From positions 791,001 through 855,000 of the forward strand of contig CANXME010001258.1 of assembly GCA_948144175.1 (NCBI GenBank): a DNA stretch of 64,000 bases, read 5' to 3'. Position 1 is the stretch's first letter. The number at the start of each line of letters is the position of its first letter. The translations under genes and the position numbers were made by a program. Below the pieces are notes generated by a model. It was not told the DNA's origin. It saw only the letters and a program-made list of their open reading frames with translations, and did no database searches. The DNA is from Closterium sp. NIES-65 (Eukaryota > Streptophyta > Zygnematophyceae > Desmidiales > Closteriaceae). This document shows, one piece after another, positions 45,231-50,985 of this stretch.

Positions 45231-45414
45231 ATATTATAATTTTTAAACACACGAAGTGTTTTTCAAAATTACGTATTTCGAAAGCGCAGATGCTTGTAAC
45301 GCATGTTTTGGCATCGTCGAAGCGCGCTAAACGCCCTTCTCCAACTACAAATCGTGGGTTGGAGCTCATTTCCCTCCACCCACGTCTCTCGTTTTCCAAC
45401 GGCTCATGCAACTC
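45231..45414 (+). repeat. Split direct repeat A1
   Basis: 184 bp starting ATATTATAATTTTTAAACAC. Recurs at 50564-50747 with one mismatch (GCAGATG versus GCAGCTG). Marks the left end of the element. Confidence 0.95.
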
Positions 45415-45532
45415 CATTTTCTCGAGCTCACTTCTAGTTTTACCGTTCAAGCTGGCGAGGACTCGCTTATTACCTAGAGGCGTTTCTCCTTCAACTTTAT
45501 TAGCCGACATCCTTAACCAAAACCGCTCAACG

Positions 45533-46716
45533 ATGGCTGCGACGCCGGCGCTTAACCGTGCTAACAACATCGTTGCCGACGACCCGATAATTTCCGACAA
45601 CGACCGTAATGCCCGTGAAACGACGGGCGAGCGTCGCAACAAGTGCCGCGCAGACGGCGAAACATCCGCCCCGACCGCCGTGGACATGCTGTTGGGCGGG
45701 CTCGAAGTCAACAAAAACGCCGAGCAGCACCCCCAGCACCCTTCGGCGCCTGTGGCGCCAGTGGCACCTGTGGCGCCAGTGGCGCCTGTGGCGCCAGTGG
45801 CGAATGTGGCGACACACGCCGCGGACGCGGAGCACGCGCCAGCGGCACACGCCTCCGGCCGGCCGTCGCGTCAGCGCCAGAGGCGCCGTACGGCTGCCTC
45901 GTCTGACGCGACGGCTGACCAGGCCTTGACCAAGTCAAGGCCCTCCTGTCCCTGTTACAGCAGCACCCCGCTAGCGCGATCGCCGCCGAAACTACACAAC
46001 CTGCGGCATCTGCATCGGCTAAAAACGACATTGCAAAAAAGGAAAAAGGAGCAAAAGGACCATCAACGCGCCGCCACGACAAGGAGGCCGTTACCAGCGC
46101 TCCTGAAGCTGCAGCAGTCAACAACGACTCCGACGACTCAGACGACGACGCCGGTGAGGCTCCGAACAACACAACAAATTTCCCCCCCATGGAAAATCTC
46201 CCTCCCCTCCCTTGCACTAACCCCACTTTTTCGGCGGCAAACTTCATTGACCCGCTCGTGCGAGCGAAAGTGGAGCCCCTGGAGGACCTGAGGGCCTACC
46301 TGAAGCACGCGGAGTACAAACTGCAGCGCGGCGACGCGGCGGGCGGACTTGAAATGGTCGCGAGCGCCCTCGACTACATTTCGGAGCGCTACGACATGCT
46401 TCAAGTCGAGGACGCCACCGACGATCGCGTCGCCAAGCGGTTCAAGATGTACAAGCAGAAGAGCCTCCTTACCTCCCGCCCGTTCAAGCAAGCCGTCGCC
46501 GACGTGGCAGCGATAGATCGCGCGGAGGGTGCGCACGCTCGATCCCACCGCGGCGGAGGTCGCGGGCCCATGGCGTTCAACCCCAAGCGCGGCCCGCCTA
46601 TGGGGAGCTTCCACGGCTTCCGTGGGACATGCTTCCGCTGCGGCCAGCCAGGGCATGTGGCAAGTGGCTGCCCGCAAAATGGCAATGGTGGCCAAGGACC
46701 CGCACCCGTGGTGTAG
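45533..46716 (+). pseudogene. YR-retrotransposon gag with internal frameshift
   Basis: ATG 45533 (MAATPALNRANN) opens a frame with (VAP)n repeats and basic/acidic stretches. Near 45915-45950 the sensible frame moves by -1 to the one ending at 46716, which carries FIDPLVRAKVEPLEDLRAYL and a CCHC zinc knuckle CFRCGQPGHVASGC near the C-terminus. The shift may be a mutation or programmed; I see no obvious slippery heptamer. A longer upstream frame from 45290 overlaps the A1 repeat and is less likely to be the start. Confidence 0.82.
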
Positions 46717-47432
46717 GGATGGTCCTTGAGCGTTTGCGCCTTAGCGCGCGTGGCACGGTGCACGTCAAATGCGTTGACCGTGGGCAACCCAAAGGGGTTT
46801 GCGGTGGCTATGAGCCAAGCCCTAGTAGGGGTGATGATTAGGCTATAGGCCTAGGTGGCAGGAGAGGGACTAGAAAGCCCTTTGGTCTCATAATTTGGCC
46901 CGTGCGGTGCGGGGCGGATGCATGCTAGAAGCATGGCTATGTGTGGCCCGTTTCTTATAAGGGCTTTATTTTTTAAAAAGTACTTTCTGATCTTGGCTTT
47001 GGATGACAAAAAAAAAAAAAAAAAAAAAAAACCAGAGAGCGACAAAATGGCAAGCACCCACACGAACCCGAGCAAACGGCCCCACCATTCGTTGGCATTG
47101 GTAGCCTTTATATTGGCCACGAGCCAAAAAGGCATGTCATGGATAAAGGGAAAGCAAGAGCAAATGCAAAGAGTGAACGAGAGCGAGATAGAGAGAGAGA
47201 AAGAAAGAGAGAGAGAGAGAGAGAGAGAGAGAGAGAGAGAGAGAGAGAGAGAGAGAGAGAGAGGGAGAGAGAGAGAGAGAGAGAGAGAGAAAGAGAGAGG
47301 GAGAGAGGGAGAGAGAGAGCGAGAGGGGAGAGAGAGGCGAACCGCGTCACACATGGGTGACAAACGATGATTAAGACTTGTTGATGTGTCTACGCACGCG
47401 TTATCGCATGCACATTCCCGAGACACGATGGC
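46717..47432. other. Spacer between gag and RT, with poly-A and (GA)n tracts
   Basis: Contains about 20 A at 47010-47031 and a (GA)n tract at 47182-47334. No supported reading frame. Confidence 0.8.
47182..47334. repeat. (GA)n microsatellite
   Basis: About 150 bp of GA dinucleotides with a few AAAG and GGGA interruptions. Confidence 0.96.
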
Positions 47433-50521: not shown

Positions 50522-50565
50522 GAACGATGCCAAATGATAAGTAAGAGAAAGCAAGCTTTCTAAAT
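50509..50565 (+). repeat. Split direct repeat B1
   Basis: 57 bp starting CCAGTTGAAATGAGAACG, identical by eye to 50929-50985. Overlaps the end of the recombinase gene and abuts A2. Confidence 0.95.
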
Positions 50566-50747
50566 ATTATAATTTTTAAACACACGAAGTGTTTTTCAAA
50601 ATTACGTATTTCGAAAGCGCAGCTGCTTGTAACGCATGTTTTGGCATCGTCGAAGCGCGCTAAACGCCCTTCTCCAACTACAAATCGTGGGTTGGAGCTC
50701 ATTTCCCTCCACCCACGTCTCTCGTTTTCCAACGGCTCATGCAACTC
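50564..50747 (+). repeat. Split direct repeat A2
   Basis: 184 bp copy of A1, directly after B1. Confidence 0.95.
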
Positions 50748-50928
50748 TCCCACCCCCCGCCCCAACACTGACGGGCATCATCGACGCTGCTTGAACGAGA
50801 AGATCGATAGCTTGTAGCATGATAGACATCAAGTAGCATGATGAATCGCTAGTACAATGATTGATACGCAGTATAGTAACATGTACTAGCACTTCTGTTT
50901 CCTAGCTCGAGGTGCATGTTGTAATTTG

Positions 50929-50985
50929 CCAGTTGAAATGAGAACGATGCCAAATGATAAGTAAGAGAAAGCAAGCTTTCTAAAT
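50929..50985 (+). repeat. Split direct repeat B2
   Basis: 57 bp copy of B1. Marks the right end of the element. Confidence 0.95.

What the first reader, a model, noticed from the sequence alone, without database searches (positions are those of the whole stretch)
45231..50985. Largely intact PAT/Ngaro-type tyrosine-recombinase retrotransposon in a streptophyte
Split direct repeats A1-ORFs-B1-A2-B2 are complete and nearly identical. RT has YVDD, RNase H keeps its acids, and the recombinase has the full R-K-HxxR-W-Y set. Such elements are known from green algae (Kangaroo, TOC3), fungi and animals, but to my knowledge are rarely described in the streptophyte lineage. The 1-in-184 difference between A1 and A2 suggests recent mobility.
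Basis: partly seen in the sequence, partly recalled or inferred. Interest (0 to 1): 0.8.

Follow-up and report, generated by a model that had tools for sequence, protein, structure and literature searches.

The report
Tyrosine-recombinase retrotransposon in streptophyte green alga
This is one copy of a recently mobile jumping gene that copies itself through RNA but inserts with a phage-like recombinase, an uncommon kind of element in a plant-lineage genome; the kind is known, and the host group is what makes it interesting.

Summary
The window carries a 5,753-bp tyrosine-recombinase (YR) retrotransposon at 45,233-50,985 with split direct repeats A1-ORFs-B1|A2-tail-B2. A1/A2 differ at 1 of 182 bases and B1/B2 at 0 of 57. 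RT, RNase H and the full YR catalytic set are present. The left end is 45,233, not 45,231, and the gag region of this copy is split over two frames.

The whole genome (874 Mb) fixes the ends. In 30 of 30 copies read B1 directly abuts A2. Outer flanks differ (15 distinct left, 21 right). Joined flanks matched an uninterrupted empty site for 6 of 10 sites, without target-site duplication. Targets favour A at -2 (14 of 15). Solo A-tail-B elements exist. dN/dS between subfamilies is about 0.1.

The host is a streptophyte by gene content, probably a zygnematophyte; its genus is unproven. The element belongs to the DIRS order with split direct repeats. PAT-like versus Ngaro-like stays open: the methyltransferase likeness is weak and no tree could be built. 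Papers of 2011-2012 report such elements as undetected in streptophytes.

The parts
45233..50985 (+). Complete tyrosine-recombinase retrotransposon, A1-ORFs-B1-A2-tail-B2, 5,753 bp
   Evidence: Ends shared exactly by other copies with different flanks; empty sites at other insertions; length
45233..45414 (+). Repeat A1 (left end, ATTATAATTTTTAAACAC...)
   Evidence: 1 mismatch in 182 to A2; start fixed by 15 distinct left flanks
45290..46291 (+). First part of the gag-like region, one frame (first ATG 45,290; a further in-frame ATG at 45,533)
   Evidence: Open frame; no Pfam family above its cut-off
45919..46716 (+). Second part of the gag-like region, another frame, with CCHC zinc knuckle (about 46,624-46,677)
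   Evidence: zf-CCHC 7.1e-6; overlaps the first part in another frame; one frame in copy L018
46717..47384 (+). Non-coding spacer between ORF1 and ORF2 with a poly(A) run and an (AG)n tract (about 47,150-47,340)
   Evidence: aligned in 18 of 19 other near-identical copies, L010-L027 and L038, L013 being the exception
47385..49457 (+). ORF2, reverse transcriptase-RNase H protein, stop-to-stop frame; first ATG 47,553; RT about 47,898-48,296, RNase H about 48,627-48,995
   Evidence: Pfam RVT_1 7.5e-24, RVT_3 3.8e-7; catalytic residues
49005..49295 (+). C-terminal region of ORF2 with weak likeness to N6-adenine methyltransferases
   Evidence: PCIF1_WW best E 6.9e-4, 6 of 8 members; Dam best 0.087, 4 of 8 members; both below Pfam cut-offs; only PDB match of the profile is PCIF1, E 0.89
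49517..50521 (+). ORF3, tyrosine recombinase, R139 K166 H251 R254 W277 Y286
   Evidence: Phage_integrase 7.8e-11; nearest solved relative Cre, E 0.018; residues
50509..50565 (+). Repeat B1, overlapping the end of ORF3
   Evidence: Identical to B2 over 57 bases
50566..50747 (+). Repeat A2, directly abutting B1; the B1|A2 joint is the two outer ends fused
   Evidence: 30 of 30 copies read
50748..50928 (+). 181-bp unrepeated tail between A2 and B2
   Evidence: also in the solo elements L084 and L085
50929..50985 (+). Repeat B2 (right end, ...AAGCAAGCTTTCTAAAT)
   Evidence: End fixed by 21 distinct right flanks

Best explanation
A recently mobile YR retrotransposon of the DIRS order with split direct repeats. 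Inferred cycle, after the published models for such elements: the element is transcribed from within A1 to the 3' repeats; RT and RNase H make cDNA, and annealing between the A and B copies restores complete ends, giving a closed circle in which B is joined to A; the recombinase then recombines the B|A joint with a genomic site that matches it over two or three bases, so the insertion makes no target-site duplication. Shown here: exact common ends, the fused joint kept inside every copy read, clean empty sites at six insertions, a short target preference, solo A-tail-B derivatives, conserved catalytic residues and purifying selection between subfamilies. Inferred: the RNA, the circle and the recombination itself.
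For: Split repeats. RT, RNase H, YR and zinc knuckle. B1 abuts A2 in 30 of 30 copies read, and a second B ends in other DNA in 27 of 30. Joined flanks found uninterrupted for 6 of 10 sites, best match per site 98-100% identical and of equal length in query and genome. Target: A at -2 in 14 of 15 distinct left flanks, A at -3 in 10 of 15, no G at -1, against 28% A in the same flanks further out; B ends in AAAT. Solo elements L084 and L085. 15 elements with both A1 and A2 by my pairing of the 41 rows; three pairs of these share an insertion site, so 12 independent insertions. ORF2: 19 of 66 rows at 97-100% identity, 14 of these 19 without a stop. dN/dS 0.09 for ORF2 against 2 older copies and 0.11 for YR against 3 older copies. 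Published integration model with a 3-bp circular junction, often AAT, and no target-site duplication: PMC3266345 (passages).
Against: Gag of this copy is frame-broken; L014 and L017 also change frame in gag. 5 of the 19 near-identical ORF2 copies carry stops. YR against 7 near-identical copies gives dN/dS 0.44-1.28, and L051 and L058 have changed a catalytic residue, so recent copies drift. Only copies without stops were used for dN/dS. For 4 of 10 sites no empty site was listed, the window's own among them (which scored 40 of 2,658 candidates); one of the 4 (C1965) was joined with the wrong right flank. The right flank of the window element is single-copy. No RNA or circle data. No tree with named references.
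Confidence: 0.95

Rival explanations
1. It is a PAT-like element: split direct repeats plus a (degenerate) adenine-methyltransferase domain, close to DIRS-like elements in RT/RNase H.
For: ORF2 C-terminus matches PCIF1_WW in 6 of 8 copies (best 6.9e-4) and Dam in 4 of 8 (best 0.087); PCIF1, an N6-adenosine methyltransferase (recalled), is the only PDB hit of the profile (E 0.89). PAT-like elements are reported from the green algae Chlamydomonas and Volvox (PMC3266345, passages).
Against: All these matches are below Pfam's cut-offs; no Dam match at E 0.001 anywhere in the genome (57 candidates, all scored; the E. coli control rings).
Confidence: 0.55
2. It is a Ngaro-like element: split direct repeats and no methyltransferase domain.
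For: Repeat order A1-ORFs-B1A2-B2 as described for Ngaro (PMC8547959, PMC9210276, passages); the ATG of ORF3 lies after the stop of ORF2; Dam not detected.
Against: Weak methyltransferase likeness of the ORF2 C-terminus. There is no room for a hydrolase ORF after the YR (B1 begins before its stop), although that ORF is described only for amphibian Ngaro.
Confidence: 0.35
3. It is an LTR retrotransposon of the Gypsy type whose repeats were misread.
For: Its RT is nearest to Ty3/retroviral RTs among solved structures, as expected for the whole group.
Against: YR instead of a DDE integrase and no protease match in the four frames scanned; repeats are split; empty sites show no target-site duplication. 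A Copia and a Gypsy frame in the same window do have integrase-type domains.
Confidence: 0.01
4. The element is a contaminant or assembly artefact rather than part of a streptophyte genome.
Against: Copies sit on many long contigs (for example C1255, 4.2 Mb) at different sites, several with matching empty sites; ALOG and GRAS genes lie in the same assembly.
Confidence: 0.02

Closest known systems
PAT-like elements (PAT, Kangaroo, TOC elements; DIRS order)
   Same: Split direct repeats, RT-RNase H, YR; known from green algae (chlorophytes)
   Different: YR in direct orientation here (PAT-like elements can have it inverted, PMC3266345 passages); methyltransferase domain only a weak likeness; host is a streptophyte
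Ngaro-like elements
   Same: A1-[ORFs]-B1A2B2 order, three coding regions, YR with HxxR and Tyr
   Different: 181-bp unrepeated tail between A2 and B2; possible methyltransferase remnant; no hydrolase ORF; no tree position
DIRS1-like elements
   Same: RT-RNase H-YR, integration without target-site duplication at a short junction-like sequence
   Different: Direct split repeats; no inverted repeat of 25 bases or more found (seed 12)
ALOG-type DIRS1 elements (Iyer and Aravind 2012, PMC3537659)
   Same: YR retrotransposon order
   Different: No ALOG hit in this YR, and none of the 6 ALOG matches in the genome lies at a YR copy listed

Membership tests
DIRS order (YR retrotransposons) | RT and RNase H together with a tyrosine recombinase instead of a DDE integrase | tested here: met
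DIRS order (YR retrotransposons) | No target-site duplication on insertion | tested here: met
   Uninterrupted empty sites for 6 of 10 joined flanks; not for the window copy itself
DIRS order (YR retrotransposons) | RT/RNase H and YR phylogenetic position | not testable with these tools
   I found no named DIRS, PAT, Ngaro or VIPER sequences to compare; three scans of viral contigs confirmed no relative
Split-direct-repeat elements (PAT-like, Ngaro-like, VIPER-like) | A1-ORFs-B1-A2-B2 with A1=A2 and B1=B2 and fused ends at B1|A2 | tested here: met
PAT-like | Adenine-methyltransferase (Dam-type) domain after RNase H | tested here: inconclusive
   Dam best E 0.087, PCIF1_WW best 6.9e-4, both below cut-off; Dam 0 matches in the genome; structure model useless, pLDDT 36.7
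Ngaro-like | Split direct repeats and absence of a methyltransferase domain | tested here: inconclusive
   Repeats met; absence of the domain inconclusive
DIRS-like (DIRS1) | Inverted terminal repeats with internal complementary region | tested here: not met
   0 inverted repeat pairs of 25 or more in 44,500-52,000 with seed 12; the ends are in direct repeats
VIPER-like | Kinetoplastid host | tested here: not met
   Host has ALOG and GRAS genes; the VIPER clade itself was not tested
ALOG-type DIRS1 | ALOG domain at the YR N-terminus | tested here: not met

The most novel reading that the evidence does not exclude
[quoted passage not shown] the published absence of such elements from streptophytes would be a sampling effect.
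Probability: 0.4. Interest if true: 0.5.

Novelty: new member of a known kind. Interest (0 to 1): 0.42.

Why it matters
DIRS1-like elements were reported as undetected in streptophytes after a screen of 274 genomes (PMC3266345, abstract and passages), and complete elements of the ALOG-bearing DIRS type as not known from streptophytes (PMC3537659, abstract and passages), although that paper derives the plant ALOG regulators from such an element. A recently mobile family in a streptophyte alga would fill the distribution gap. With copies, solo forms and empty sites in one genome, target choice and end formation of YR retrotransposons become testable there. This YR has no ALOG domain, so it is not evidence for the source of ALOG.

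Tried and rejected
Phylogeny: not possible. Three scans of viral contigs (ORF2 alone, YR alone, and alignment A3 of the RT with the window's Gypsy RT) confirmed 0 relatives. I found no named DIRS, PAT, Ngaro or VIPER sequences to use and typed none from memory.

Structure: AlphaFold of ORF2 from the ATG at 47,553, single sequence, gave mean pLDDT 36.7, so no fold search was made.

Empty site of the window copy: its right flank is single-copy; its joined flanks found none. One search scored only 40 of 2,658 candidates, so its misses (C1907, C95, window, C1965) are weak. For C1965 the script joined the wrong right flank: that copy lies inside the A repeat of an older related element.

Background for the target preference: the base count mixed in some element DNA and the other strand; it was redone on oriented flanks (28% A).

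Host identity: the 14 control genomes of the genome search are prokaryotes, so '0 of 14' for ALOG and GRAS says nothing about eukaryotes. Closterium was considered because that complex has genomes of 454-1,188 Mb with many duplicated segments (PMC10407611, passages); this is a guess.

A dead reading: that the whole 5' half was replaced in older copies. L028, L032 and L037 have other ORFs upstream of ORF2, and I did not work out whether these belong to the element.

Full report
What is there. The element spans 45,233-50,985 (5,753 bp). A1 and A2 (182 bp) differ at one base, B1 and B2 (57 bp) at none; after A2 comes an unrepeated tail of 181 bp and then B2. The longest exact repeat outside the AG tract is 124 bases against 11-14 in 20 mononucleotide shuffles. 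Three coding regions lie in direct orientation: a gag-like region with a CCHC knuckle, an RT-RNase H protein, and a tyrosine recombinase. The YR residues R139, K166, H251, R254, W277 and Y286 fit the Cre order R-K-HxxR-W-Y (the Cre residue roles are recalled), and Cre is its nearest solved relative (E 0.018). ORF2 keeps YVDD and four RNase H acids. Between ORF1 and ORF2 lies a spacer of about 670 bp with a poly(A) run and an (AG)n tract, aligned in 18 of 19 other near-identical copies.

A starts at 45,233. In the window the flank happens to end in AT like B, so the repeat seems two bases longer; 11 of the 41 A matches in the genome begin at query base 3, and all 18 left ends read start with ATTATAA. 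In the older copies A2 starts with ATGATAA or ATGAAAA. The gag region is in two frames here (45,233-46,291 and 45,919-46,716). Only one other fetched copy, L018, reaches back past that place, and it is open in one frame there; L020, L023, L025 and L026 cover a part of it and are open; most other loci begin after it; L014 and L017 change frame elsewhere in gag. The one A1/A2 difference is at 45,290.

Ends and target. I read 30 loci on the 3' side (L039-L068) and 18 on the 5' side (L001, L069-L085). In 30 of 30, B is followed at once by A (fused ends). In 27 of 30 a second B follows and then other DNA, 21 distinct flanks in all; one group of three copies has a variant last base of B. The 18 A starts have 15 distinct left flanks. 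Pairs of contigs share flanks (C21/C1907, C95/C2081, C1977/C810 on the left; C615/C553 and C2186/C2342 on the right), as expected if some insertions are older than segment duplications, or if the assembly holds both copies of a region. I joined the flanks of nine copies and of the window and searched the genome: 6 of 10 sites (C2050, C1894, C1800, two on C1749, C2199) have uninterrupted matches across the joint, best per site 98-100% identical; C2050 and one C1749 site lie in dispersed repeats with many matches, the other four have one or two. C1965, C1907, C95 and the window have none among the 40 scored of 2,658 candidates. C1965 was joined wrongly. So at six insertions the ends are exact and there is no target-site duplication. 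In 15 distinct left flanks, A stands at -2 in 14, at -3 in 10, and G never at -1; A makes up 28% of these flanks further out, so 14 of 15 has a chance of 2e-7 and 10 of 15 of 0.002 for a position chosen beforehand; I picked the positions after looking at eight. 20 right flanks (those without the nested copy and the variant group, plus the solo L085) show no comparable preference, the strongest being T at +2 in 10 of 20. B ends in AAAT, so the preference looks like a short match between the B|A joint and the target, as in the published model (PMC3266345, passages).

Copies, age, selection. One search lists 41 A matches (40 scored of 1,128 candidates, so a lower bound); by my pairing of these rows 15 elements have both A1 and A2, 12 of them about 5.3 kb apart, and three pairs share an insertion site. 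One search lists 66 ORF2 matches (66 scored of 7,709 candidates): 19 at 97-100% identity (14 without a stop), 11 at 86-96%, 36 at 80-82% (all without a stop, but these are the best-scoring rows). One search lists 120 YR matches (of 962 candidates): 20 at 95-100%, 10 at 84-88%, 90 at 80-81%, some of these with stops. The 80-82% group thus has more rows than the window's own; I could not read its DNA, so that it has the same repeats is not shown. ORF2 of the window differs from 12 near-identical copies by 0.5-1.3%; dN/dS against two older copies is 0.09, and for YR against three older copies 0.11. Against 7 near-identical YRs it ranges from 0.44 to 1.28, against the 12 near-identical ORF2s from 0.13 to 0.40 (only copies without stops). 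Part of A1 (49-63 bases) was compared with A2 in 8 other copies: 0 differences in 7, 1 in one; B1 and B2 are identical in 6 of the 7 where both were matched and differ at 4 in one, and in the eighth, C95, B1 has one change. No absolute age can be given, since the host's mutation rate is unknown. L084 and L085 hold A followed directly by the A2-B2 tail, without ORFs, as would arise from recombination between A1 and A2; L085 ends exactly at the B end, the end of L084 was not fetched.

Host. The assembly has 874 Mb in 2,400 contigs. It holds 6 ALOG matches and 98 GRAS matches, several of which look like exons of one gene; the window has a KIP1-like frame (2.1e-7, just below Pfam's cut-off), and cyclin and FKS1 domain matches. 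ALOG outside retroelements is reported from streptophytes, Spirogyra included (PMC3537659, passages). GRAS in Zygnematophyceae and land plants and KIP1 as a plant family are recalled. Streptophyte is well supported, zygnematophyte likely, Closterium a guess.

What it works like and what it is. It works like a YR retrotransposon with split direct repeats. [quoted passage not shown] the methyltransferase domain is said to be missing from Ngaro (PMC3266345 and PMC9210276, passages; Poulter and Butler 2015 is cited there and was not read). The ORF2 C-terminus matches PCIF1_WW in 6 of 8 copies (best 6.9e-4) and Dam in 4 of 8 (best 0.087), below the cut-offs, and PCIF1 is the only PDB match of its profile (E 0.89). 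I lean to PAT-like with a degenerate domain, but it is not shown.

Literature. Ten searches of the open library listed no title or abstract start that describes a YR retrotransposon in a streptophyte. Four of the lists were complete, one showed 20 of 24 papers, and five showed only the best 8-20 of 113-505. I saw passages of ten papers and no whole text. The charophyte elements of PMC5890265 (Klebsormidium) are Gypsy elements. [quoted passage not shown] Against the novelty: a review of plant genomes lists DIRS among the retrotransposon classes of plants without naming a case in the passages seen (PMC11630846). Subscription journals, Repbase and genome supplements were not searched, so a repeat table may list such elements already.

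Noticed in passing
G000 contigs C108, C311, C317, C643, C678, C734, C799, C823, C887, C901, C959, C1215; L086 (C311:66150-66720): Repeats spaced about 9,133 bp with two different tyrosine-recombinase genes on opposite strands (frames mostly of 346 and 615 aa); the 346-aa type fills 37 of the 143 rows. L086 gives Phage_integrase at 1.2e-25; of 157 plasmid records that match it, the five listed are 27-29% identical. Possibly an organelle or plasmid-like element; unexplained.
   Followed up: partly
G000 contigs C241, C2233, C2250, C1956: A further YR family (frames of 307 and 153 aa), in mirror-image pairs on C241, C2233 and C2250 and in two same-way copies on C1956.
   Followed up: no
G000, for example C741, C1642, C2187, C1652, C332: Other YR matches not among the rows, which is capped; perhaps more YR-element families.
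   Followed up: no
G000:C1965:925189-932367 (L005, L040, L070): A young copy nested inside the A repeat of an older, related element.
   Followed up: yes
window 46717-47384: Poly(A) run and long (AG)n tract in the spacer between gag and ORF2, aligned in 18 of 19 other near-identical copies; possible role in ORF2 expression unknown.
   Followed up: partly
L028, L032, L037: Three older copies have other long ORFs just upstream of ORF2; those of L037 look like the end of a Gypsy integrase by eye.
   Followed up: no
window 18701-33095 and 37044-41904: Copia-type elements with long glycine- and alanine-rich stretches; the one at 27696-33092 has RVT_2 1.5e-47 and rve; the others were judged by eye from their frames.
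   Followed up: partly
window 16198-17942 and 33778-36123: Gypsy-type pieces; the frame at 33778-35256 has RVT_1, RNase H and integrase zinc-binding domains, the others were judged by eye.
   Followed up: partly
window 60376-63711 (-), 52445-55332 (-) and 2033-2488 (-): Host genes: a KIP1-like coiled-coil frame (possible actin-binding NET type, recalled), a cyclin N domain split over two frames, and an FKS1 domain.
   Followed up: no
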